Made by a program: the position numbers and the translations under genes. From positions 124,001 through 188,000 of the forward strand of contig NZ_JAUYHK010000005.1 of NCBI RefSeq assembly GCF_030690045.1: DNA of 64,000 bases, given 5' to 3'. The notes under the pieces were generated by a model. The model had not been told where the DNA came from and searched no databases. It saw only the letters and a program-made list of their open reading frames with translations. This document shows, one piece after another, positions 8,251 to 26,323 of the stretch. Positions within the stretch are counted from its first letter, which is position 1, and every line of letters begins with the position of its first letter. This DNA comes from Thalassospira sp. Lineage in GTDB: Bacteria; Pseudomonadota; Alphaproteobacteria; Rhodospirillales; Thalassospiraceae.

Positions 8251-9453
8251 ATGATCACCACCGACATTCTGATAGCAGGCGGCGGCATTGCCGGCATGAG
8301 TGCGGCGGCACGGCTGGCCGCCGATGGTCATGAGATCATTCTGGTTGACCCCGCCCCCGCCAGCCCGGATCACAATGCCGCCAACCACCCCGATCTGCGC
8401 ACCACCGCCTTTTTACAGCCGGGCATTGCCACCCTGACCCGTGCCGGGGCGTGGCAGGCGATGCAGGATAACGGCGCGATGTTGCGCGTCATGCGGATCA
8501 TTGATGCGGGCGGGGCCGAACGCACCCCGCGTCAGACCGCCGATTTTGACGGCATCGAAACCGGTCACGGTCATTTCGGCTGGAACATTACCAACCGGAC
8601 GGCCCGCACCGCCTTGCTGGCCCGGCTGGCCGGATTGCCCAATGTGCAATTCCTTCAGGGGGTTGCGGTGACCGGCATGGCACCCGGCACAGATACCGCC
8701 ACCGTCACCCTGTCGGATCAGCAAACCATCGCCACCCGGCTGGTCATTGCCGCCGATGGCCGCGATTCGGCCCTGCGCGACATGGCCGGAATCACGCATC
8801 GCCGCTGGCAATATGATCAGTCCGCCCTTGTCTTTGCCGTCACCCATGATCGGCCGCACGACAATATTTCCACCGAAATCCACCGCACCGGCGGGCCATT
8901 GACCCTTGTGCCGATGCCCGATCACAATGGCAAACCCTGCTCGTCCGTGGTCTGGATGACCCCGGCCCGGCGGGCCGACACATTGTTTGCGATGGATGAT
9001 GCCACCCTGTCGCAAACCCTGATGGATGAAACAATGGGCCTGTTTGGCACGCTTGCGGTCACAGGGGGCCGTGCCGTCTGGCCGATGATCTCGCAAATCG
9101 CCGCCCGCCTGACCGGCCCGCGCCTTGCCCTGATTGCCGAGGCCGCCCATGTCGTCCCGCCAATTGGCGCACAAGGATTGAATATGAGCCTGCATGACAT
9201 CGAAACCCTGGCCGGGCTTTTGGCCACCGCCCGCAATGACGGCGACGATATCGGTGCGGCCCGTTTGCTGACCCGCTATCACCGCCGCAATTTCCCGCGC
9301 ATGGTGGCGCGGGTCGGCGGCATTGATATCCTGAACCGCGCGGCGATGGCCGAACCCCGCCCGCTGCGCGATTTGCGCTGTCTTGGCCTGACCGCACTCA
9401 ACAAAATCGCCCCGCTCCGCAAACTGGCAATCCGGGCCGGGATTGGCGAATAA
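8251..9453 (+). CDS. UbiH/UbiF/COQ6-family FAD-dependent hydroxylase
   Basis: A 400-residue class A flavoprotein monooxygenase that probably hydroxylates the aromatic ring during ubiquinone biosynthesis. The FAD dinucleotide motif GGGIAGMSAA is at residues 10-19, the DGRDS motif is near 168, and the second FAD motif reads AEAAHVVPPIGAQGLNMS, the alphaproteobacterial variant of GDAAH. AGGA nine bases upstream of the ATG sets the start. Which ring position it modifies cannot be told; alphaproteobacteria use UbiL, UbiH, UbiF or UbiM in different combinations. Confidence 0.85.
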   Translation: MITTDILIAGGGIAGMSAAARLAADGHEIILVDPAPASPDHNAANHPDLRTTAFLQPGIATLTRAGAWQAMQDNGAMLRVMRIIDAGGAERTPRQTADFDGIETGHGHFGWNITNRTARTALLARLAGLPNVQFLQGVAVTGMAPGTDTATVTLSDQQTIATRLVIAADGRDSALRDMAGITHRRWQYDQSALVFAVTHDRPHDNISTEIHRTGGPLTLVPMPDHNGKPCSSVVWMTPARRADTLFAMDDATLSQTLMDETMGLFGTLAVTGGRAVWPMISQIAARLTGPRLALIAEAAHVVPPIGAQGLNMSLHDIETLAGLLATARNDGDDIGAARLLTRYHRRNFPRMVARVGGIDILNRAAMAEPRPLRDLRCLGLTALNKIAPLRKLAIRAGIGE

Positions 9454-9495
9454 TCACGCCCCACAAAGAAGGTTTTTTCCGTCACCCCCGCGAAC

Positions 9496-9546
9496 ATGGC
9501 AATCTTCGCCATATAAATTGACATGATTTGCCACAGGCACTAGCCT
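9496..9546 (+). promoter_or_regulatory. Promoter and dyad upstream of parDE
   Basis: TTGACA at 9518-9523 and TAGCCT at 9541-9546 are separated by 17 bases, a good sigma-70 promoter. A dyad ATGGC-N7-GCCAT (9496-9512) sits just upstream and could be the ParD autoregulatory site. Confidence 0.6.
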
Positions 9547-9568
9547 GATCCTCGCAAAGGAGCATGCC

Positions 9569-9814
9569 ATGGCAACGATGAATGTGTCCCTGCCCGATCA
9601 GATGAAAACATGGGTCGAAAGCAGAACAACCAGCGGCGATTACAGCAATGCCAGCGATTATGTCCGCGATCTGATCCGCAAGGATCAGGAACGCCAGACC
9701 GCCATCGCCACCCTGCAAGCCGCCATTGACGAGGGCCTGCAAAGCGGCATTGCTGAAAATTTTGACGCGACCGACTTCAAGCTGCGCATGCGCGAGCGCC
9801 ATGTCGTCCGCTAG
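9569..9814 (+). CDS. parD: ParD-family antitoxin, type II toxin-antitoxin system
   Basis: An 81-residue antitoxin. The N-terminal ribbon-helix-helix (MATMNVSLPDQMKTWVE) should bind the operator as a dimer. The Ser-Gly-Asp-Tyr and NASDYVRDLIRKDQ segment is typical of ParD, and the acidic C-terminal tail should wrap the toxin. AAAGGAG precedes the ATG. The 3' end overlaps the toxin start by 14 bases, giving translational coupling with antitoxin first. Confidence 0.92.
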   Translation: MATMNVSLPDQMKTWVESRTTSGDYSNASDYVRDLIRKDQERQTAIATLQAAIDEGLQSGIAENFDATDFKLRMRERHVVR

Positions 9815-10121
9815 GTCTGCCGGTTATCAACTGACACACAAGGCAATTGCCGATCTGGACGACATATGGCGTTACAGCGCGGAAACATGGTCTGTCGCCC
9901 AGGCCGACCGATTCATTGACGATCTTGTGCATTTGTTTGATATCCTCGCCGATATGCCAACGATGGCGCGCGAACGCCCGGAATTCTCCCCGCCGGTCCG
10001 CCTTCATCCCTTTGGCTCATCGCTGATCGTCTATCGCGTTGATCCCGATCACATCACTATCCTGCGCCTTTTGGGCGGTTCGCAAAACTGGCAGGACATC
10101 CTGCATGCGATTGACAGATAA
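9801..10121 (+). CDS. parE: ParE/RelE superfamily toxin
   Basis: A 106-residue toxin of the ParE branch, which targets DNA gyrase. The N-terminal YQLTHKAIADLDDIWRYSAE and the C-terminal IVYRVDPDHITILRLLGG are the conserved ParE core. The start inside parD is fixed by family alignment, since the frame is open further upstream only by chance. Toxin and antitoxin appear intact, so the module may be functional. Confidence 0.9.
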   Translation: MSSARSAGYQLTHKAIADLDDIWRYSAETWSVAQADRFIDDLVHLFDILADMPTMARERPEFSPPVRLHPFGSSLIVYRVDPDHITILRLLGGSQNWQDILHAIDR

Positions 10122-10139
10122 GCAGGCCGGGCCGCATCC

Positions 10140-10688
10140 TCACACAACCCGCGCCGGATTCCCCACCACCGTCACCCCCGGCGGCACATCCTTTGTCACC
10201 ACCGCCCCGGCACCGACAATTGCATCATCGCCAATATGGATCCCGGCCAAAATCACCGCCGCCCCGCCGATCCAGACATTCTTGCCAATCGTCACCGGTT
10301 TGGCGATTTCAAGGCCGCCTTTGCGCAAATCCGCATCCTTGTGATGCTGCGCACAATAGATTTGCACATGCGGGCCCAACATCGTGCCATCGCCAATCAT
10401 GACCGGCGCGCTGTCAAGGATCACACATCCGGTATTGATAAACACCCCCGCCCCCAGCGTGATATGAATACCGTAAGAACAATGAAACGGCGCCTCGATC
10501 CGCGCATCATCGGCACAGGCCGCAAACAGGGCACGCAATGTCGCGCCGATATTGCCGCGCCGGTCGGGGTGGGTGGTGCTGTGGTCAAATGCGGCGGCGC
10601 GGGCAGCACTGCGCAATTTTTCAAGTTCCGGGTCAAGGCAGCAATACCATTCCCCCACCGCCATTTTGTCGCGTTCCGTCCGGTGCAT
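10140..10688 (-). CDS. Sugar O-acetyltransferase (Maa/LacA/NodL type)
   Basis: A 182-residue left-handed beta-helix acyltransferase. The Maa domain (MAVGEWYCCLDPELEKLRSAA) is followed by hexapeptide repeats (ITLGAGVFINTGCVILD, VTIGKNVWIGGAAVILAG, IGDDAIVGAGAVVTKDVPPG). The catalytic His is in IYCAQHH, where the usual His-Pro is His-His. It transfers acetyl from acetyl-CoA to a sugar; the acceptor is not predictable. It lies in the same orientation as, and downstream of, the cupredoxin-like gene. Confidence 0.88.
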   Translation of the reverse strand: MHRTERDKMAVGEWYCCLDPELEKLRSAARAAAFDHSTTHPDRRGNIGATLRALFAACADDARIEAPFHCSYGIHITLGAGVFINTGCVILDSAPVMIGDGTMLGPHVQIYCAQHHKDADLRKGGLEIAKPVTIGKNVWIGGAAVILAGIHIGDDAIVGAGAVVTKDVPPGVTVVGNPARVV

Positions 10689-10754
10689 CTTTCCCCCGCC
10701 CTGTTTGGGTTTCTGATGCCAGAATGCCCGATACGGCGGGGGAAAGGAAAGCCG

Positions 10755-11246
10755 TTATTCCACAATCAGCCGGTAATTGGGCGTCGGGTTTAACGGACAG
10801 GAATAAACATATTCACCGGGCGTCAGGGTGACGGCGTAATCCTTTGTCTTGCCCTGACGCAGCCCACCGCCAGACACCGAAATCTTCTGGTTCAAAATCT
10901 TGTCGGTCCAGTCATAGTCAACATCGCGGATCCAAAAGCCCAGCTCATAGGGCACATTTTCATTGGCAACGCGAAAAATGAAATCCCCGGCACTGACCCG
11001 CATGACATTCGATTGCGCCAGCCGTTGCGCCCCGCTGTCGCCATTGATGGTTTCACAATCGGCTTTCTTGCGGGTTTCATAACCATGATCCTTGCCTTCG
11101 GGTTCCAGAAACTGACACCCGGTTTGCGTCAGTTCAATCACCTGCGGGGCGGCATGGGCAGTGGCGGGCATCATTGCCGCAGCCAGAACCCCGGCACATC
11201 CGGCCAGCCCGGCCATCCGCCATCTCCGCAACACGGTCTTTTCCAT
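10755..11246 (-). CDS. Secreted cupredoxin-like protein
   Basis: A 163-residue exported protein. Residues 1-32 form a signal peptide ending AHAA. The mature part has two Cys (TGCQFLEPEG and KADCETING), then beta strands resembling a cupredoxin (MRVSAGDFIFRVANENVPYE) and a closing segment GEYVYSCPLNPTPNYRLIVE. The closing Tyr-x-Cys resembles the copper loop, but the downstream His and Met ligands are absent, so a normal type 1 copper site is unlikely. GGAG nine bases upstream supports the start. Function unknown. Confidence 0.6.
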   Translation of the reverse strand: MEKTVLRRWRMAGLAGCAGVLAAAMMPATAHAAPQVIELTQTGCQFLEPEGKDHGYETRKKADCETINGDSGAQRLAQSNVMRVSAGDFIFRVANENVPYELGFWIRDVDYDWTDKILNQKISVSGGGLRQGKTKDYAVTLTPGEYVYSCPLNPTPNYRLIVE

Positions 11247-11394
11247 CCTCTTGCTCTCCTGATGCAGCGCCCCGCCCTCCCTGTGACGGGGGGCAAGGCA
11301 GGTTATCGATCTGCACAGTCTGGCCGCCTGACCGCCAAATCGGAAATCAAGACCACATCACACTACAGCGAGCCACCCGCGAGCAAATAACCCC

Positions 11395-12219
11395 TCAGAC
11401 GATCAGATTGCCGTTTTCATCAAAAAACGGATAAGGCCCGTCAAAATGTCCGATATAACTGGTATGGGTCATCAACCCCTGTTGCGGCGACCAGAAATGC
11501 AAATGCATCGCCGGGGGTTCCATGATAAAGGCCGACGGCCCGTCGGGCCGCACATCCAGTGCCACCTGATGCGCCACCGATGGCCCGATGCTGATCGGCA
11601 CCCCCTGCCACACACAATGAATGGCCCGGTGGACATGGCCGCAAATCAGGCCGATCACCCCATCCGATTTGCGCAGCAACCCGCCCAGTTCATCGGCACC
11701 GTCGCCAAGATTTTGCACATCCATATGACGAATGCCGGTCAAAACCGGCGGATGATGCATGAAAATCAGCCGCGGCCTGTCGGTCGCAATCGCCAGTTCA
11801 TGGCGGAGCCAGTCCAGCCGTGCGGCGCACAATTTCCCGCCCGGCATGCCTTCGTCAAGGGTATCAAGGCCAATCAGGCGCACCGGGAAATCATCAATCA
11901 CATATTGCAAAAACGGCTGGTCCGCTGTCACCGGAATCGCCTGTGGAAAGGCGGTGCGTAACGGTTCCCGCCGGTCATGGTTTCCCGGCACCATGTAATA
12001 GGGAATGGTCAGGCCGCGCAAAATGTCGCGCACCAGCCCATATTCTTCTGCCGTTCCCAAATCGCCAATATCGCCGGTAAACAAAACAATATCGGGCCGG
12101 GGATCAAGCGCCATGACATGGCGCACGGCATTTTCCAGTGCCCCGGCGGTATCCACCTTGCGATAGGCCAGACGACGACCTGCACCGATATGCAGGTCGG
12201 TTATTTGTGCAATCAACAT
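11395..12219 (-). CDS. Class III metallophosphodiesterase (CpdA/GpdQ-like)
   Basis: A 274-residue calcineurin-like phosphoesterase. The two-metal motifs are all present: D8-x-H10, GD near residue 50, GNHD at 79-82, the MHHPP block, and GHVHRA near the C-terminal third. The family hydrolyses cyclic nucleotides or glycerophosphodiesters. It is the last gene of an ABC import operon, 15 bases after the ATPase gene, which argues for hydrolysis of the imported compound rather than cAMP turnover. That assignment is inference. Confidence 0.85.
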   Translation of the reverse strand: MLIAQITDLHIGAGRRLAYRKVDTAGALENAVRHVMALDPRPDIVLFTGDIGDLGTAEEYGLVRDILRGLTIPYYMVPGNHDRREPLRTAFPQAIPVTADQPFLQYVIDDFPVRLIGLDTLDEGMPGGKLCAARLDWLRHELAIATDRPRLIFMHHPPVLTGIRHMDVQNLGDGADELGGLLRKSDGVIGLICGHVHRAIHCVWQGVPISIGPSVAHQVALDVRPDGPSAFIMEPPAMHLHFWSPQQGLMTHTSYIGHFDGPYPFFDENGNLIV

Positions 12220-12234
12220 TCCGGAAACTTTCCT

Positions 12235-13296
12235 TCAGGCCCTGCGCGGGAAAATCATCAATTTGTCGCGATCAATACGCAGATGCACGGCTTCGCCAAT
12301 CCGCACATCGCGCTCTGCATCCGCATCCACCGTCATCAGGGCATCGCCAATCCCCGCCACCGACAGGCGGGTGCGGTCCCCCAGATAGGCGGCACTTTCG
12401 ACAATCCCGGAAAAATGGGCGTCGTGCTGTTCGCTCAGGGCCATCGTATCGGGCCGGAAAAACACATCGACATCCCCCGGCGCCATGCCGTCCCCGCCCT
12501 GCGGTTCCAACGCCACCCGGAATTCCCCGACATGCAATGTCCCTTGCGCAAAGGTTGCGGGCAGGCAATTGGTCGTGCCGATAAACCCGGCAACAAAGGC
12601 ATTTTGCGGATGACCATAAATGTCGCGCGGGGTGCCGATCTGGGCGATACGGCCCTTTTGCATCACCACAATCCGGTCGCCCAACGCCATCGCTTCTTCC
12701 TGATCATGGGTGACGTAAATCGCCGTAATCCCCAATTGACGCAAAAGCGAATTGATTTCGGTGCGCAGCCGTGTGCGCAATTTCGCATCCAGTGCCGTCA
12801 ACGGTTCGTCCAGCAACAACACACGCGGTTCCACCGCAATGGCCCGCGCCAGCGCCACCCGTTGCCGCTGTCCGCCCGAAAGCTGGTCAATCCGGCGATG
12901 GGCCAGATTGTCGATATGCATCATTTCCAGCATCCGCATGACGCGCCTGTCGCGGTCATCGCGGTTGATTTTCAACACTTTCAATCCATAGGCAACATTC
13001 TGGGCTACCGTCATATTGGGAAACAGCGCATAGGACTGAAACACCATGCCCACCCGCCGGTCTTCAATCGGCAAACGGGTCACATCATCGCGATCAAACA
13101 GGATCTGCCCCCCGGCATCGGGATATTCCAGCCCGGCAATCAGCCGCAAGGCCGTGGTCTTGCCACATCCCGACGGCCCCAGCAGGACAATCGTTTCCCC
13201 GCCCTCAATCGTCAGGTCAAACGGTTCAAGCGCCTGCGTGCCATCGGCAAAGGTTTTGGCGCAATGGCGCAATTCAATACGGGTTTTTTGAGTCAT
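12235..13296 (-). CDS. ABC transporter ATP-binding protein
   Basis: A 353-residue import ATPase with a C-terminal regulatory (TOBE-like) domain. Walker A is GPSGCGKTT near residue 37, the Q-loop VFQSYALFP, the signature LSGGQRQR and Walker B VLLLDEP. It is of the PotA/FbpC/PhnT type. Its start overlaps the stop of the second permease by ATGA. It energises the importer encoded with it. Confidence 0.92.
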   Translation of the reverse strand: MTQKTRIELRHCAKTFADGTQALEPFDLTIEGGETIVLLGPSGCGKTTALRLIAGLEYPDAGGQILFDRDDVTRLPIEDRRVGMVFQSYALFPNMTVAQNVAYGLKVLKINRDDRDRRVMRMLEMMHIDNLAHRRIDQLSGGQRQRVALARAIAVEPRVLLLDEPLTALDAKLRTRLRTEINSLLRQLGITAIYVTHDQEEAMALGDRIVVMQKGRIAQIGTPRDIYGHPQNAFVAGFIGTTNCLPATFAQGTLHVGEFRVALEPQGGDGMAPGDVDVFFRPDTMALSEQHDAHFSGIVESAAYLGDRTRLSVAGIGDALMTVDADAERDVRIGEAVHLRIDRDKLMIFPRRA

Positions 13297-14132
13297 GACA
13301 TATCCTTGTCATCGGTTACGGTCTTGCGCGGATCGGGTTTCTGCCAGTTGGCCAGAACCTGCATCGCAATCAGCAACGGCATGATCAGCACAAAGAAAAT
13401 CAGGGTATAGGCACTGCCGATTTCCAGCCGCATCGAGGCATAGGAATCGGCAAGCCCGACCGGCAGGGTTTTGGTCAATGGTGTATGCAGCATCCAGGTC
13501 AGGTTGAATTCCCCGATGGATAACGTCACCACCATCAACGATCCGGCCAGAATGCCGGGCCGGGCATTGGGCAGGATCACGGTGAAAAACCGCCGCCAGA
13601 ACCGCGCCCCAAGGCTCGCCGCCCCTTCTTCAAGGGCACGCAGATCAATCGCCGACAAAATCGCCGAAACCGACCGCACCATGAATGGCAGGGTAAACAG
13701 CACATGCCCGGTCAGAATAAACAGCGGACTGGTCCGATATCCGGGAAACCCGCCATACGTGATCAGCAAGGCCAGCGCCAGCGCCAACCCCGGTATTGCC
13801 ACCGGCAGGGTCAGCAATTCCTCGAACAGGCGTGACAGCCTGCCCGGACAACGCACCAATACATAAGCCAGCGGCACCCCCACCACCAGCGTCACCGCCA
13901 GACAGGCCAGCGCCAGCCAGACCGACAATAAAATACTGTCCGAATACAGCATCCAGACTTCGCCGACCCAGCGCAATGTCAGGCCGGATTTCAGCCCCTG
14001 AAACACATTGACCGTCACCCCGGCCAGCATCGACATCACAATCGGCACCAGAATGAACAGGCATAACAACAAAGTCAGGACAAGCTGCGCGTAAAAGCCC
14101 CGGCTGCGCGGGGTGGTGTTTTTCACCGTCAT
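13293..14132 (-). CDS. ABC transporter permease, second subunit
   Basis: A 279-residue inner-membrane permease with about six helices and the cytoplasmic EAA loop (ALEEGAASLGARFWRRFFTVILPNARPG). The start MTVKNTTPRSRGF is set by an ATGA overlap with the first permease; the longer open frame upstream reads through that gene in the wrong phase. It pairs with the neighbouring permease in a PotBC/PhnUV-type importer. Confidence 0.9.
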   Translation of the reverse strand: MTVKNTTPRSRGFYAQLVLTLLLCLFILVPIVMSMLAGVTVNVFQGLKSGLTLRWVGEVWMLYSDSILLSVWLALACLAVTLVVGVPLAYVLVRCPGRLSRLFEELLTLPVAIPGLALALALLITYGGFPGYRTSPLFILTGHVLFTLPFMVRSVSAILSAIDLRALEEGAASLGARFWRRFFTVILPNARPGILAGSLMVVTLSIGEFNLTWMLHTPLTKTLPVGLADSYASMRLEIGSAYTLIFFVLIMPLLIAMQVLANWQKPDPRKTVTDDKDMS

Positions 14133-18411: not shown

Positions 18412-19713
18412 ATGACAGAAGACGGAAAACAGGAAACACCAACGCTGGAAGGCGAAGCCGCCCTCGACCTATGGCGCAAGGGACGCGACGTATGGAACAG
18501 GTGGATTGATCAACATCCGGGCTGGAATATCAGTTTTGACGGTGTAGATTTTTCAACCGAACGGAATTCCGAAGGGAAACTCTTTTTCGCAGGTTATCAT
18601 TTCGGCGATGGCGACGTGAACTTCTCTGGAACCACTTTCGGTAACGGCACCGTAAACTTCTCTGGTGCCACTTTCGGCGACGGGGATGTGAATTTCAGAC
18701 ATGCTTCTTTCGGCAAAGGCAACTTGATCTTCTCGAATGCGAATTTTGGCAACGGTGACGTGAACTTCTCTTTCGCCACTTTCGAGGACGGCAATGTGAA
18801 ATTCTCTAAAGCCACTTTCGGAGATGGTGAAGTTAGCTTCAAAAGCACTAATTTCGGTAACGGTGAAGTCAAATTCGATGACGTTACCTTCGGTGATGGC
18901 AAATTAATATTCAACAGAGCAAAATTCACAGATATAATTTTTCTTCCACACTATTTGGGGTCACTAAGTTTTGAAGCCTATGGAATTTCAGTCAATAACT
19001 TGGCTATTTTTGGTTTTTTTACCTCCGCTAGTAAACTGAAATATTTTAGTTTGGAATGGGCATCGTTTGGCGGACCTCTCCTGTTGAATGGCACTCTGGA
19101 CATCGTGCCGGATCTTCGGTCCACCCGATATTCGCATCAGGTTGACCTCAGCACATTAAACGTCAAACTGCGGCGTAAATGGCATAAACTCAGTTGGCCA
19201 CCGAAACTCTCGTCCGTGGCAAAACATCCAGAGGATGCAGCCCGGTTAAGACGCCTCAAAGAAATTGCTGAAACCAACAAGGACCATCAGGCCGCCTTGC
19301 GGTTTTCTGCCGATGAAAACAGGGCGCGGCGATGGCTGGAAACATCGTGGTTTGGGTCGGTTCTCGACATGGCTTTCAGCGCGTGTAGCAACTACGGTCA
19401 AAGCATCCTGCGGCCCTTTGTGGCCCTATTCGTGCTCGCCGTCGCCAGCATGGCCCTCTATAAAAAACTGGCAGTGGCAACATTCGCCGCGTGGTGGACG
19501 GGTCCGGGTTGGGGGCAATCGCTATTCTTGTCGATCAGCAACAGCCTGCCTTTCCTTCCGCAATCGCGGAGCTTGCGAGAGGGCGCGCTAAAAGCACTTT
19601 ATCCCGGTGATCCGGGCTTTTGCGTCGATGTCCTCATGATCGGGCAAGGCGTTCTCAGTTTCGTTTTCCTGTTCCTGATCGGTCTGGGTCTGCGCAACCG
19701 TTTCCGTCTATAG
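18412..19713 (+). CDS. Membrane-anchored repeat protein with nine 12-residue repeats
   Basis: A 433-residue protein in three parts. Residues 64-171 are nine 12-residue repeats of the form F-G-(D/N)-G-x-(V/L)-x-F-x-x-(A/T)-x, likely a right-handed beta-helix related to Pentapeptide_3 proteins (spacing Phe-5-Phe-7-Phe rather than 5 and 6). Residues about 285-320 are a charged linker. The C-terminus has two membrane helices (YGQSILRPFVALFVLAVASM and GQGVLSFVFLFLIGLGL). The Tyr-Gly-x-Ser-x-x-Arg-Pro-Phe motif before the helices recurs in other pentapeptide-type membrane proteins. Function unknown. The part after the repeats is visibly AT-richer than its neighbours. The start lacks a strong ribosome binding site. 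Confidence 0.75.
   Translation: MTEDGKQETPTLEGEAALDLWRKGRDVWNRWIDQHPGWNISFDGVDFSTERNSEGKLFFAGYHFGDGDVNFSGTTFGNGTVNFSGATFGDGDVNFRHASFGKGNLIFSNANFGNGDVNFSFATFEDGNVKFSKATFGDGEVSFKSTNFGNGEVKFDDVTFGDGKLIFNRAKFTDIIFLPHYLGSLSFEAYGISVNNLAIFGFFTSASKLKYFSLEWASFGGPLLLNGTLDIVPDLRSTRYSHQVDLSTLNVKLRRKWHKLSWPPKLSSVAKHPEDAARLRRLKEIAETNKDHQAALRFSADENRARRWLETSWFGSVLDMAFSACSNYGQSILRPFVALFVLAVASMALYKKLAVATFAAWWTGPGWGQSLFLSISNSLPFLPQSRSLREGALKALYPGDPGFCVDVLMIGQGVLSFVFLFLIGLGLRNRFRL
18601..18924 (+). repeat. Nine tandem 36-base coding repeats
   Basis: Nine in-frame units of 36 bases encode the 12-residue repeat of the membrane protein. Copies share TTCGG-(C/T)-(G/A)A-(C/T)GG and AA(C/A)TTC cores but are well diverged. 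They have no spacers and lie wholly within one reading frame. Confidence 0.85.
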
Positions 19714-22800: not shown

Positions 22801-22934
22801 GGCAGAAAAAAGTCGCCACCACCGGCCTTGAAAACATGCTGGTCACCGGCTTTTCCTGCCGCTGTCAGGTCAAACGGTTTGAGGGGGCAAAGCCGAAACA
22901 TCCTGTTGAATATCTGTCGGCTCTGCTAAACTGA
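19887..22934 (+). CDS. ydiJ: FAD-binding and Fe-S dehydrogenase (YdiJ family, D-2-hydroxyglutarate type)
   Basis: A 1015-residue protein matching E. coli YdiJ in length and layout. An N-terminal FAD PCMH domain (GGGTGTNGQSLN, GGMIGSDSSGKGSRIYGKTS) is followed by the GlcD-type C-terminal domain (MFGHVDVGCLHVRP, GEHGKGFRGEY), a ferredoxin-like region (CNGNGACFNYDLADAMCPS and CLSCKACAGQCPV), and a C-terminal CCG-type domain (GCCGMAGVYG, SCRCQVKRFEG). The family oxidises D-2-hydroxyacids, notably D-2-hydroxyglutarate, and passes electrons to the respiratory chain. The start MIPKLTPD is placed by similarity to YdiJ; an ATG 16 codons upstream has no better ribosome binding site. A short Asn/Thr/Ala-rich stretch interrupts the last domain. 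Confidence 0.9.
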   Translation: MIPKLTPDRSLDDLSLAFLRTLQNEGKYRGDIHADYPARLIHATDNSVYQVMPVAILHPRSGDDITAIMELAGRPAFRGIKLTPRGGGTGTNGQSLNNTVIVDTSRHLNRILDFDAEKRLVRVEPGVVLEQLNAWLKPYGFFFPPNVSTANRATIGGMIGSDSSGKGSRIYGKTSHYLHEMTTVLVDGTELVSRALDKDEADHEAARPDRIGAIYRKVRDEIAPRRALIQSVFPEMNRGMTGYNLKEAVRDDGGMDLGFLIAGAEGSLGLTREVTLRVIPLPKFKALTVLRYDSFDAALRHVGALLKFDPVAIESIDDKVMALAQQDESWHLLAKLLGTEGEAVPTRGFNVVEFATDDAADLARQQAALQAHLAAHPDAPHAPTGWVQATDAGQIAAIWSIRAKAVGLLGNLEGKRRATPFVEDTAVPPENLADFIAEFRALLDAEGLDYGMFGHVDVGCLHVRPLLDMCDDEDEARLRRVSDKVVALTRKYNGLIWGEHGKGFRGEYSPAYFGPELYDVLRRIKQEFDPEGQLNPGKIASPFSRDIPITAIDAAPLRGHFDRQIDAKLRDEYLNATRCNGNGACFNYDLADAMCPSYKVTRDRVHSPKGRAGLIREWIRQRSVGNDADAPELAFANARDFSHDVYDAMAGCLSCKACAGQCPVRVDIPEMKSRFLEAYHQRYKRPINDYGVAQLETLAPLMAKAPLLFNTLTGLPPLRWLLARTIGLEDLPMLSRRNLKSALRDRGIAPFDAAQLAALSPAQKAGSVMLIQDCFTSHYDADVVIAHVDLLQKLGYRVFVPPYRPNGKPLHVKGFLKRFDRLAARNDATYHALAQQGIAMIGIEASVTLTYRQEYAQRLENRPDYAIRLFHEWLHDEIATGRLTPPPVKPGAGVNGVNTATANATTNATATLFPHCTEKTSIPDVTVKWQKIFAAFGLTLSGERTGCCGMAGVYGHETAHRETSRALYDQSWQKKVATTGLENMLVTGFSCRCQVKRFEGAKPKHPVEYLSALLN

Positions 22935-22969
22935 TTCCGTTATTCTGGATAACCGACGCCGGTGCAGAT

Positions 22970-23269
22970 ATGAACAATGCAGATATGAACAATATGGATG
23001 TGCGCGATATCATCGCGGCCAAAGACGCAAACAGCGGCGGCCATGCCCTGCCCACCGCATATGCCCGTCGTATCTTCATGGAAATTGATCCTCCGCTGAC
23101 CGTATGGCGCGATTATCGCGGCATGACGCAGCGCGACCTTGCCCGGAAAGCCGGGATTGCACCCGGTTATCTGTCGAAAATCGAAAACGGCAAAAAAGCC
23201 GGGTCGCTTGACGCATGGCGCAAACTCGCCGCCGCCCTTGATGCCCCGATTGATGCGCTGGTGGCCTGA
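22970..23269 (+). CDS. XRE-family helix-turn-helix protein
   Basis: A 99-residue DNA-binding protein. Its HTH occupies residues about 48-95 (RGMTQRDLARKAGIAPGYLS then KIENGKKAGSLDAWRKLA). The first 40 residues are less conserved. The start is uncertain: a short direct repeat ATGAACAAT occurs twice there, giving alternative Met codons. It resembles solitary antitoxin-like regulators, but no toxin gene adjoins it. It lies 35 bases after ydiJ and may be cotranscribed. Confidence 0.8.
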   Translation: MNNADMNNMDVRDIIAAKDANSGGHALPTAYARRIFMEIDPPLTVWRDYRGMTQRDLARKAGIAPGYLSKIENGKKAGSLDAWRKLAAALDAPIDALVA

Positions 23270-23287
23270 CAAAGGAAAAACCCCGCC

Positions 23288-23617
23288 GTGATCCGCCATA
23301 TCGTCCTGATCAAATTCAAACCGGATATCAACAAAGCCGCAATCAACAACCTGTTTGACGCACTGGCAACCCTTGGCGACCAGATCGCCGAAATGCGCGG
23401 CTTTGACGGCGGAATATCGGTCAGCCCGGAAAACCTCGAACAGGGTTTCCGGCACGGCTTCAGCATTGATTTCGACGATGCCAAGGCGCGGGATGCCTAT
23501 CTGGCCCATCCCCGACATCAGGCACTGGGCGCAGAACTGGTCAAGGCCGCCAATGGCGGGATTTCAGGGCTGATTGTGTTTGATTTGGAAGTACAGGTGT
23601 TTAGTCCCCGCCTTTGA
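23288..23617 (+). CDS. Dabb family stress-responsive A/B barrel protein
   Basis: A 109-residue ferredoxin-like Dabb domain protein. Typical segments are IRHIVLIKFKPD at the N-terminus, the GFDGGISVSPEN turn and the AYLAHPRHQALG helix. The domain forms dimers and occurs in stress proteins and some cyclases; no enzymatic activity can be assigned. GTG start with AGGA about 11 bases upstream. Its stop overlaps the start of a short downstream frame. Confidence 0.8.
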   Translation: MIRHIVLIKFKPDINKAAINNLFDALATLGDQIAEMRGFDGGISVSPENLEQGFRHGFSIDFDDAKARDAYLAHPRHQALGAELVKAANGGISGLIVFDLEVQVFSPRL

Positions 23618-23784
23618 TGGTGCGGGTCGCCTGTAAACCTTTCGGGTTCAGTTATCCGGATTATGCAGATGGCGTAATCGATAGCCGTATTGTCATTGAA
23701 GACTTCTTCCTTGGCGGTAACAATGTCGTTGAATTGCTGGTTGACGAAAATCAGCAAGCCTTTGACCTTACCATATTTCTCTAA
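23617..23784 (+). CDS. Short ORF coupled to the Dabb gene (55 aa)
   Basis: The TGA of the Dabb gene overlaps this ATG (TGATG), a common coupling arrangement. The 55-residue product begins MVRVACKPFGFSYPDYADG and ends DENQQAFDLTIFL. It has normal-looking codon use and mixed hydrophobic/acidic composition. I do not recognise it. It could be a real small protein or the surviving 3' end of a deleted gene; the abrupt change to the sigma-54-driven unit downstream favours a junction here. Confidence 0.4.
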   Translation: MVRVACKPFGFSYPDYADGVIDSRIVIEDFFLGGNNVVELLVDENQQAFDLTIFL

Positions 23785-23851
23785 CTGAGTTGCGCGAGCA
23801 CTCTCCGATCTTTAGCCATAGGATCGGGGAGGTTCCTGTCAGCCACTCTAC

Positions 23852-23867
23852 TGGCACGAAAATTGCT
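23852..23867 (+). promoter_or_regulatory. Sigma-54 (RpoN) promoter
   Basis: CTGGCACG-N4-TTGCT matches the -24/-12 consensus YTGGCACG-N4-TTGCW at every position. The -24 GG is at 23853-23854 and the -12 GC at 23865-23866. Transcription would begin near 23877, about 30 bases before the first of two paralogous genes. A hairpin (CCGATC/GATCGG) lies just upstream. No other perfect match was noticed in the window. The enhancer-binding protein is unknown. Confidence 0.75.
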
Positions 23868-23907
23868 GATTGCGAGCACAACCTGAATGAGAACACAGGA
23901 GGTCAAA

Positions 23908-24489
23908 TTGACTGCAATTTTCGCATCGCAAAATTTCGTCCACTTAGCGCAAGTGTCTGAGGGTCATATTGGACGACCGACCGAAATGGCCAATGAAATG
24001 CTCGCCCGCGAGAGAGACCATCTCCGTGCCAAGATCGAATATGACAGCAAAGCCCAACTGGAATGGCAAAATGCACAGCCAATCTATTCGGGTTTCCGGT
24101 TGAATGGTGAACTGGTTGGTATGATCGGTGTGAATACCGGGTTTACCGGCAGCGGCATTTCCGATGGTGGCGCGTACCAGCGCGCAATAGAAGTTGCCAA
24201 ACAAACAGGGTTAACTGGCGAAGCCTTTGCCAAATATGCCACAGATCAGGTGTCCCAGGCACTGAAAGCCCGTTATGGCGACCGTATCGAAGTCGAAGTC
24301 TATGATACAGAAAATCGTCCGACATCCGGTGAAATGCACACAGAAATGTTCGGCCCGCCCGCCTCAACACCGGACACTCCCAAATTCAATGACAGCGAAC
24401 TCGCCTGGATGAAAGTCTTCGCGCAACTCTATTCGCAAAATTTCGGTGAGGATCCGTTTGCCGGTTTGGATGTTCCGTACGACCAGTAG
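23908..24489 (+). CDS. Conserved protein of unknown function, tandem paralogue A
   Basis: I do not recognise this 193-residue protein. It has no signal peptide or membrane helix. An N-terminal polar helical region (about residues 25-60) leads to a core beginning NAQPIYSGFRLNGELVGMIG, then GFTGSGISDGGAYQRAIEVA, then EVEVYDTENRPTSGEMHTEM, and the tail ends FGEDPFAGLDVPYDQ. A TTG start fits best: AGGAGG lies five bases upstream, and the context is homologous to the ATG start of the next gene. The 95-residue core is 75 of 95 identical to paralogue B. A consensus sigma-54 promoter precedes it. Confidence 0.7.
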   Translation: MTAIFASQNFVHLAQVSEGHIGRPTEMANEMLARERDHLRAKIEYDSKAQLEWQNAQPIYSGFRLNGELVGMIGVNTGFTGSGISDGGAYQRAIEVAKQTGLTGEAFAKYATDQVSQALKARYGDRIEVEVYDTENRPTSGEMHTEMFGPPASTPDTPKFNDSELAWMKVFAQLYSQNFGEDPFAGLDVPYDQ

Positions 24490-24535
24490 GTCATCAAGCC
24501 GACTGAAACCCGAAAAACCCGACTTCTGACATGCC
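24481..24535 (+). repeat. Duplicated 3' flank of the tandem paralogues
   Basis: The last codons of paralogue A plus about 45 bases after its stop recur after paralogue B at 25131-25184 with one substitution and one deleted A. The noncoding part is thus better conserved than parts of the coding region, which points to recent duplication or gene conversion, or to a functional 3' element. Confidence 0.8.
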
Positions 24536-24560
24536 TGATGACAATGAGATGGAGGCAAAA

Positions 24561-25139
24561 ATGACAACTATTTCTTCGACTGTGACTATTGGACAGCAAA
24601 ACCGGGTTCAGGCAGAATTCAAATCTGGTCTGGATGATTTTACCAAAGACCTGATGGTGCAACAAAAAGAATGGTTGGCAGCAAAACTTGCATATGACGG
24701 TGAAGCTCAACGGGCTTCGCAAAATGCTCAACCAATACATACGACCTTTCGGCTGAACGGAAAACTGGTAGGAATGATCGGTGTGAATAGCGGTTTTACT
24801 GGCACCGGAATTTCCGATGGTGGTGCGTATCTGCGCGCAATAGAAGTTGCCAAACAAACAGGGTTAACCGGCGAAGCCGCTACCGATTATGCAAGTGAAC
24901 AGGTGTCTCAAGCATTAAAAGATCGCTATGGCGTAAATATAGAAGTCGAAGTCTTTGAACCGGGAAATCGTCCGACAACTGGCGAGATGCACACAGAAAT
25001 GTTCGGTGAGGCAACCTCCCTGTATGAAGGGATGAGTTCAGACTGGATGGCCTATATCAAGCATTTCGCTCAGACTTACGCCCAGACTTTTGGCGAAGAT
25101 CCGTTTGCCGGTTTGGATGTTCCGTATGACGACCAGTAG
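24561..25139 (+). CDS. Conserved protein of unknown function, tandem paralogue B
   Basis: A 192-residue paralogue of the preceding gene, sharing the core (FRLNGKLVGMIGVNSGFTGT, SDGGAYLRAIEVAKQTGLTG, NRPTTGEMHTEMFG) and the tail FGEDPFAGLDVPYDDQ. The N-terminal 45 residues and the 25 residues before the tail have diverged. ATG start with GGAGG five bases upstream. The 71-base gap from paralogue A holds no terminator, so both are probably expressed from the sigma-54 promoter. Function unknown; the lack of export signals suggests a cytoplasmic role. Confidence 0.72.
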   Translation: MTTISSTVTIGQQNRVQAEFKSGLDDFTKDLMVQQKEWLAAKLAYDGEAQRASQNAQPIHTTFRLNGKLVGMIGVNSGFTGTGISDGGAYLRAIEVAKQTGLTGEAATDYASEQVSQALKDRYGVNIEVEVFEPGNRPTTGEMHTEMFGEATSLYEGMSSDWMAYIKHFAQTYAQTFGEDPFAGLDVPYDDQ

Positions 25140-25184
25140 GTCATCAAGCCGACTGAATCCCGAAAACCCGACTTCTGACATGCC

Positions 25185-26323
25185 GGTTGGCAGGATGCTG
25201 ACCGGTTCGTTTTTTCCTACACCAAGGTATTGGCTCAAAGGTGTAGGAATAATGTGCCTTCGATCATGCATTTCTTTGCCCCCCTCTCGCCCGATTGAGC
25301 AAAAGACATATTGAGATGATGCTCAAAACTGTTTCTGTTGCTCCGGCTGGTGACCTGCTTCCGCAAAACCAGCCAGTGAAAATGCTGCACCACAGATACC
25401 CTCCCCTGACGGCGGTGACGACGACAAAGGGGCAATCCGGCCAAAGCCCACCCACCCGTCTTTCCGGCAGAGTCCGTGCCCGCAAATGCGAACGCAGGAC
25501 TCCCTGCCGCCGCCGGGCATTTGTCCCCTCGCCAACCGGACCCGCCGCAAGACAGCCCCCGCTTTCGGGGCTGTGGCAACAAAGGCGCACCCCGCCCAAA
25601 GCCTGCCTTTCCCGTGACCACGGGCACCGGACAAACCTCGGGCATCTGCCTGCCTCGCCAACAAGCCCGCCAAAGGTCCCGTCGCCCGCTCCCGCCCCTC
25701 CCCGGTCAGGCCCGACGCTGCCGGATCATGCCGGATGCCATTCCGGGCAGGCAAGCCGCCCACAAGACGCAATTCGGGCGTCTTGATCTTTGGCCGGGTC
25801 AGACCGCCTACGCACTACCCCCGTAATGGCTTTTCCACCCGCCGGTTATGGTCATGCGATTTCGCTTTCCAATCTGTCTGTCATTTTGCCGCTGCATCAT
25901 CGTCTCTTTCATCTGGCCCAAACGCAAAAACCCGCAAGGTACAAGCCTTGCGGGTTTCGGTCCGGGCGCATTTGCCCCGTTGATTTTTCTGTTATGCCAC
26001 AACGAAAAGAACAAAGCAAGAACTTTTTTCAAAAAATCTGAAAAAACTTTGCTTGCGCACTGTCGGCCGGTCAAAAATGATTTAAAAACAATATGTTGAA
26101 CATACACACAGAAGGCAAAAAACATGTCGGCATTCTCTGATCCGGGCGCAAAGGGAGCAGTTTGCGCAAGATCAAAGACCGGAACAACAGTTTGATTTAG
26201 AACCACTCCTGTTTGCAAAATGCCGAGGGGCGTTTGGGATGTGGTCCTGCACCCCACATTGATGACCATCAGTCATCAACCCGGCATTTTGCGTGGCACC
26301 GCCGGACGATTTCAGGAGCGACA
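25185..26323. other. 1.1 kb region without a convincing gene
   Basis: Frames are open on both strands in the GC-rich part (about 25400-25800), but none has a good ribosome binding site or protein-like composition. Visible structure: a 10-base inverted repeat TTCCTACACC/GGTGTAGGAA (25214-25223 and 25240-25249); TTGAGCA/TGCTCAA and GGCTGGT/ACCAGCC dyads near 25300-25380; ACAGCCCC/GGGGCTGT near 25550; and CAAGACGC/GCGTCTTG (25763-25785). The last 300 bases are AT-rich and hold no clear promoter. It may be decayed DNA or a structured RNA locus. Confidence 0.4.
25929..25958. terminator. Bidirectional Rho-independent terminator-like hairpin
   Basis: AACCCGCAAGG/CCTTGCGGGTT, an 11-base perfect stem with a six-base loop, preceded by AAA and followed by T. 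It lies within the gene-free region with no gene ending nearby on either strand. Confidence 0.65.

What the first reader, a model, noticed from the sequence alone, without database searches (positions are those of the whole stretch)
23852..25184. Sigma-54-driven tandem pair of proteins of unknown function
A full-consensus -24/-12 promoter precedes two adjacent paralogues that I cannot place in any family. Both are about 190 residues, have strong AGGAGG-type ribosome binding sites, a core 75 of 95 residues identical, and the shared C-terminal tail FGEDPFAGLDVPYD. RpoN control implies a regulated physiological role such as nitrogen, motility or envelope response. Conserved short motifs (GFTG-x-GISDGGAY, NRPT-x-GEMHTEMFG) look like a functional core rather than drift.
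Basis: partly seen in the sequence, partly recalled or inferred. Interest (0 to 1): 0.72.

Follow-up and report, generated by a model that had tools for sequence, protein, structure and literature searches.

The report
Sigma-54-driven orphan protein family, probably flagellar
Two adjacent bacterial genes of unknown kind belong to an undescribed protein family in which nearly every member carries the same special on-switch (a sigma-54 promoter), the switch this bacterium also uses for flagellum genes, so they may be accessory or secreted products of the flagellum.

Summary
TGGCACGAAAATTGCT (23852-23867) is a full-consensus sigma-54 site before a two-gene unit: A (TTG 23908-24489) and B (ATG 24561-25139). 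A and B share 75 of 95 core residues. No Pfam, NCBIfam, PDB-sequence or PDB-fold match was found. The genome is a Thalassospira.

I found 36 homologous genes in 32 genomes (30 of 297 of the order, 2 of other orders). A -24/-12-like site precedes 34 of 36, at -48 to -68 from the start in 32. The exceptions are B (second in its unit) and one outlier (L054). Two late, remote homologues, found by profile alone, also had it.

In this genome sigma-54 sites also front fliD, flgH and other flagellar genes, and FlbD-type and FliX genes are present. FlbD-like palindromes occur before some homologues, but not before the window subfamily (0 of 4). The proteins have uncharged N-termini, no signal peptide and few cysteines (5, 47 expected).

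Best reading: accessory proteins of a sigma-54 flagellar regulon, perhaps exported by the flagellum. Sigma-54 control is well supported by sequence, the flagellar link is probable, and export is conjecture. No expression data were available.

The parts
23852..23867 (+). sigma-54 (-24/-12) promoter TGGCACGAAAATTGCT, 56 nt before the TTG start of gene A
   Evidence: site conserved before 34 of 36 homologous genes
23897..23902 (+). ribosome-binding site AGGAGG of gene A
   Evidence: sequence
23908..24489 (+). gene A, 193 aa, TTG start; orphan-family protein
   Evidence: homologues
24561..25139 (+). gene B, 192 aa, paralogue of A, no promoter site of its own
25182..25206 (+). terminator-like hairpin followed by a T-rich tail after gene B
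   Evidence: one found, 2.2 expected by chance
23801..23831 (.). inverted repeat CTCTCCGATC...GATCGGGGAG just upstream of the promoter; role unknown, not conserved in the three nearest homologues

Best explanation
A and B are one sigma-54-dependent operon of an undescribed, fast-diverging, cysteine-poor orphan protein family found patchily in flagellated members of the order of Thalassospira. RNA polymerase with sigma-54 opens the promoter at 23852 when an enhancer-binding activator is active. The activator is most likely the flagellar one (FlbD, controlled by FliX), so the proteins are made together with late flagellar parts. The products are small soluble proteins with a flexible, weakly charged N-terminus, a selected alpha/beta core and a variable tail. 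They most likely act as accessory proteins of the flagellum, possibly exported through the flagellar type III channel. Shown by sequence: the promoter and its conservation, homology, selection on the core, lack of a known domain. Inferred: operon, flagellar timing, activator. Conjecture: export.
For: (1) 34 of 36 homologous genes score 13 or more within 110 nt upstream; background 2.2% of random windows of held loci, 2.7% of windows and 1 of 45 ORF upstream regions of this window. (2) Two remote homologues added late by profile alone (E 7.7e-9 and 0.003) score 17.0 and 15.7. (3) Of 36 relaxed sigma-54 sites in the genome (control 8), the 30 whose downstream genes I looked at include fliD, flgN-like, flgH and a flagellin, as well as the family paralogue L003 (Pfam). 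(4) In 4 of 6 congeners an exact site lies about 93-94 nt before a listed flagellin match. (5) An FlbD-type activator (sigma-54 interaction domain E 8.4e-71) and FliX (2e-33) are encoded. (6) A palindrome CGGCARNWNYTGCCG lies before fliF, fliD and flgH and before some homologues: 13/13 in L007 and L008, 11/13 in L003, L016 and L038, and one in L150. (7) Family: 5 Cys in 4,562 aa, 47 expected; residues 2-20 charged 0.14 against 0.23 in 175 ORFs. (8) 30 of 30 carriers in the order have flagellin, 29 of 30 have FliX.
Against: The window subfamily has no ftr-like palindrome (0 of 4 promoters), nor an NtrC- or NifA-like one above shuffles. The genes I could name beside homologues at 8 loci were not flagellar. 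The family is patchy even in the genus (21 of 29 genomes), so it is not needed for flagella. Flagellin and FliX are common in the order (249 and 255 of 297), so co-occurrence says little. FliF, FliX, FliW and FlaG, which are not classic export substrates, are also Cys-free. The palindrome consensus was drawn by eye from five of the promoters later scored, so their scores are partly circular.
Confidence: 0.45

Rival explanations
1. The operon is sigma-54-dependent but driven by a non-flagellar activator (nitrogen, carbon or envelope stress); the proteins are cytosolic adaptors or enzymes of that response.
For: The window subfamily lacks ftr-like palindromes (0 of 4). Some other sigma-54 sites of the genome precede solute-binding proteins of ABC transporters (L077, L078, L086). 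The named neighbours at homologous loci are not flagellar.
Against: No NtrC- or NifA-like site above shuffles at the window subfamily. Homologues of the same family carry ftr-like palindromes.
Confidence: 0.3
2. Part of the flagellar regulon but cytosolic: a regulator, chaperone or assembly factor in the manner of FliX, FlaG or FlgN.
For: Small soluble Cys-poor proteins without signal peptide; FliX, FliW and FlaG share the Cys-free composition.
Against: Patchy occurrence and rapid divergence are unusual for assembly factors; no Pfam match.
Confidence: 0.2
3. The promoter match is chance and the gene pair is drifting.
For: Single -24/-12 matches do arise by chance: 8 reversed-control matches against 36 for the relaxed pattern.
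Against: Site kept at nearly constant spacing in 34 of 36 homologues; core dN/dS about 0.2 or less.
Confidence: 0.03

Closest known systems
FlbD/FliX-controlled sigma-54 flagellar genes of Caulobacter (ftr sites)
   Same: -24/-12 promoters; FlbD-type activator and FliX present; palindromes before fliF, fliD and flgH. PMC3930126 (passages seen) states that FlbD binds ftr sites, with ftr4 upstream of fliF. Downstream ftr elements are named in a reference title seen in PMC3096577.
   Different: Genes lie outside flagellar clusters and have no known flagellar domain; the window subfamily has no recognisable ftr. The Caulobacter ftr letters themselves were not seen in any call (recalled resemblance only).
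Non-flagellar proteins exported by the flagellar type III system (Campylobacter Cia/FspA type)
   Same: Works-like resemblance: orphan genes, no Sec signal, weakly charged N-terminus, few Cys. PMC2764114 seen as search listing and start of abstract only.
   Different: No sequence relation was tested; export not testable here. That FspA is sigma-28-dependent is recalled.
FliX / FlaG / FlgN (cytosolic flagellar helpers)
   Same: Small Cys-poor proteins of the same regulon
   Different: No Pfam match of A, B or 13 further homologues to these families

Membership tests
sigma-54 (RpoN)-dependent promoters | -24 GG and -12 GC elements with 10-base spacing, consensus TGGCAC-N5-TTGCW | tested here: met
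   Exact match at 23852-23867; conserved at 34 of 36 homologous genes
sigma-54 (RpoN)-dependent promoters | Expression lost without RpoN | not testable with these tools
   No expression data
FlbD flagellar regulon | FlbD-type activator and FliX in the genome | tested here: met
   Pfam: Sigma54_activat 8.4e-71, HTH_8, weak receiver; FliX 2e-33
FlbD flagellar regulon | ftr-like enhancer near the promoter of the window pair | tested here: not met
   Best score 4.4 (maximum 21.8; reached by 89% of 380-bp background stretches) in -230..+150 of the window promoter; 0 of 4 in its subfamily. A degenerate site cannot be excluded.
FlbD flagellar regulon | ftr-like enhancer near promoters of other homologues | tested here: inconclusive
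   11/13 or better in 5 of 21 family promoters, one more in L150; the rest 8-10. Consensus drawn partly from L007 and L008.
Flagellar type III export substrates | No Sec signal or membrane segment; weakly charged flexible N-terminus | tested here: met
   No hydrophobic N-terminal stretch in 18 proteins; charge 0.14 against 0.23; residues 1-22 of A have pLDDT under 50. Shared by many cytosolic proteins, so not specific.
Flagellar type III export substrates | Secretion that depends on the flagellar export gate | not testable with these tools
   Needs experiment
Any Pfam or NCBIfam family | Score above the curated cut-off | tested here: not met
   A and B: best Pfam E 0.053, best NCBIfam E 0.015, both below cut-off; 15 family members in Pfam: best E 0.017, each family hit by one member
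Known folds (PDB) | Clear fold match of the predicted model | tested here: inconclusive
   Foldseek best E 0.62; VIA-align best Z 4.0 (68 residues, rmsd 3.1); model from 3 sequences, mean pLDDT 74.6

The most novel reading that the evidence does not exclude
The family is a class of flagellum-coupled secreted proteins in free-living marine and related Alphaproteobacteria: stand-alone genes that travel with their own sigma-54 promoter, are switched on by the flagellar assembly checkpoint and are exported through the flagellum, i.e. a non-pathogen counterpart of the flagellar secretome of Campylobacter.
Probability: 0.2. Interest if true: 0.8.

Novelty: new variant of a known kind. Interest (0 to 1): 0.58.

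Why it matters
A promoter that is kept while the protein diverges to 15-25% identity is a strong sign that timing of expression is the essential trait of this family. If the flagellar link holds, it adds an accessory, patchily kept set of proteins to the alphaproteobacterial sigma-54 flagellar programme, and makes flagellum-dependent secretion in free-living marine bacteria testable with one rpoN, flbD and export-gate mutant each. It also shows that promoter conservation can identify members too diverged for routine sequence search (L151, E 0.003).

Tried and rejected
Domain searches: A and B in Pfam and NCBIfam; 15 members in Pfam and PHROGs (PHROG best E 0.011, families without function); PDB sequences (best E 0.13; profile best E 0.15, a plant-pathogen avirulence protein, taken as chance); PDB folds (the VIA list is mostly proteasome subunits at Z 4.0 or less, taken as chance). 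PADLOC was not searched.

Plasmids and phages: no tblastn match at E 0.01. Rfam: none at gathering in 22900-26300.

Activator of the window pair: ftr, NtrC and NifA consensus found nothing above shuffles or background in its subfamily. Consensus words for NtrC and NifA are recalled.

Rows dropped: of 42 genomes with a match at E 1 or better, I count 30; of the other 12 (E 0.027 to 0.92) I read two (G103, G092: lipoprotein-like proteins, different sequence, no site above 11.2) and did not look at the other ten. Three matches at E 0.12-0.61 among 80 non-carriers (80 of the 267 non-carriers were sent) were not looked at. In one search the FlgK row was out of frame and is ignored; the label '/12' should read '/13'.

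Weak points: start codons of several homologues were chosen after seeing the site; the 36 genes are not independent (about a dozen subfamilies); the scoring matrix was written from the textbook consensus by hand (recalled). A second background, upstream regions of 351 ORFs of held loci, gives 4.8% at score 13; it includes family and flagellar genes. L013-L015 have a weak -24 element (TGGTCT, score 13.0). For L048 the start is unclear (-27 or -108); it also carries an in-frame stop in the match. The p value for N-terminal charge (0.0017) treats related proteins as independent.

Literature: five searches; none of the titles and abstract starts listed described this family. That is the only basis for calling it undescribed, besides the family libraries. 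Passages read by term search in PMC3930126, PMC3096577, PMC7911332 and PMC7064773; no paper was read whole.

Full report
What is there. The site TGGCACGAAAATTGCT lies at 23852-23867, one of 10 exact places in the 4.23-Mb genome against 2 for the reversed control. Gene A (193 aa) starts at TTG 23908 behind AGGAGG at 23897-23902; gene B (192 aa) at ATG 24561. They are 63% identical over 167 aa, with 75 of 95 identical core residues. B has no site of its own; a terminator-like hairpin follows B. The core is under selection (A/B dN 0.13, dS 0.66; A/T. lucentensis dN 0.16, dS 1.04), with gene-conversion-like patches between A and B.

The family. One protein finds 16 of 150 related genomes; a 15-row profile finds 32 genes in 28 of 297 genomes of the order; a wider profile adds one gene each in G345 and G628 of other orders among 385 genomes of the class, and a third adds G174 and G179. 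Total 36 genes in 32 genomes. In the genus 21 of 29 genomes have one or more, in at least three unrelated places. No Pfam, NCBIfam or PDB sequence match is significant. The model of A (mean pLDDT 74.6, pTM 0.55; the other four models 66.8 to 47.9; core about 58-150 better, residues 1-22 below 50) is alpha/beta with two to three strands, two long helices, one strand and two helices; no fold match.

The promoter is the most conserved feature. Scoring the 110 nt before each start, 34 of 36 genes reach 13.0 or more (27 of 28; L012, L030, L044, L048, L059, L150, L151); 32 of the 34 lie at -48 to -68, L047 at -81, L048 is unclear. Exceptions: B, and L054 from another order (best 4.4). Chance levels at 13: 2.2% of random windows, 2.7% in this window, 1 of 45 ORF upstream regions of this window, 4.8% of 351 ORF upstream regions that include family and flagellar genes. 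Related rows are not independent, but every one of about a dozen subfamilies other than L054 has the site. L150 and L151 are the cleanest test: found by profile after the pattern had been noticed, scores 17.0 and 15.7, while two other weak profile matches that turned out to be unrelated lipoprotein-like proteins have none.

What sigma-54 does in this genome. The relaxed pattern has 36 places against 8 in the control. I examined 30 of them. Four lie in one flagellar cluster on contig C13: before fliD, an FlgN-like gene, flgH, and 171 nt before a flagellin, inside the preceding gene. Others precede the family paralogue L003, two further orphans without Pfam match or not tested (L090, L081), and solute-binding proteins of transporters; several are probably chance. 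In 4 of 6 congeners an exact site lies about 93-94 nt before a listed flagellin match (the lists are capped). The cluster encodes an FlbD-type activator next to an flhA-like gene, and FliX.

Activator site. By eye I saw palindromes CGGCARNWNYTGCCG before L007, L008, L090, L081 and flgH. The core GGCARNWNYTGCC has 33 places in the genome against 15 in the control, among them one about 115 nt before fliF and one by fliD, in line with FlbD acting at ftr sites, including one upstream of fliF, in Caulobacter (PMC3930126, passages). Of 21 family promoters 5 reach 11/13 or more; L150 has one 66 nt before its site. The window subfamily has none (0 of 4), nor an NtrC- or NifA-like site above shuffles. 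So flagellar control is probable for the family and open for the window pair.

Features that fit export. In 18 proteins residues 2-20 have 14% charged residues against 23% in 175 ORFs, with no hydrophobic N-terminal stretch. In 21 proteins there are 5 Cys in 4,562 aa against 47.4 expected; 17 of 21 have none, against 74 of 314 background pieces of 200 aa. Flagellin, FliD, FlgE, FlgG, FlgL and FliK of this genome have none either, but so do FliF, FliX, FliW and FlaG, so this is suggestive only. All 30 carriers of the order have a flagellin match and 29 of 30 have FliX (the missing one, G111, is 67% complete), but 249 and 255 of 297 genomes have these anyway.

Genome places. The subfamily of L033, L034, L038-L043, L045 and L050 lies behind tandem tRNA-Thr(GGT) genes at 10 of 10 loci; 10 loci of other subfamilies have no tRNA within the fetched stretch. 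The eight loci read have neighbours that I could name only from memory of their sequences, none of them flagellar. Together with patchiness this looks like genes that move or are lost together with their promoter.

Verdict. Sigma-54 control is well supported; membership in the flagellar regulon is my best reading; export is a testable conjecture. Nothing here is an experiment.

Noticed in passing
G000:C10:533538 (L090; L106:6102-7511 -): A second kind of orphan: 470 aa, Ala/Ser/Thr-rich, no Cys, no Pfam match, with a sigma-54-like site and a perfect ftr-like palindrome.
   Followed up: partly
G000:C5:14216 (L081; same contig as the window, outside it): A third kind of orphan: 167 aa, no Cys, sigma-54-like site and a perfect ftr-like palindrome downstream of it.
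   Followed up: partly
L033, L034, L038-L043, L045, L050: One subfamily sits behind tandem tRNA-Thr(GGT) genes at 10 of 10 loci.
   Followed up: partly
window 24200-24260 and 24487-24535 / 25137-25184: Gene-conversion-like near-identity of parts of A and B and of their 3' flanks, inside otherwise diverged genes.
   Followed up: partly
window 23617-23784 +: Open frame of 55 codons that overlaps the stop codon of the Dabb-domain gene and ends 67 bases before the promoter; unknown.
   Followed up: no
window 18412-19713 +: 433-aa protein with tandem short repeats of the kind xFGxGxVxFSxATF, pentapeptide-like by eye.
   Followed up: no
L068 (G628), about 8858-13479: The one homologue without a sigma-54 site lies between an RTX-like repeat protein and what look like type I secretion genes (by eye).
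   Followed up: no
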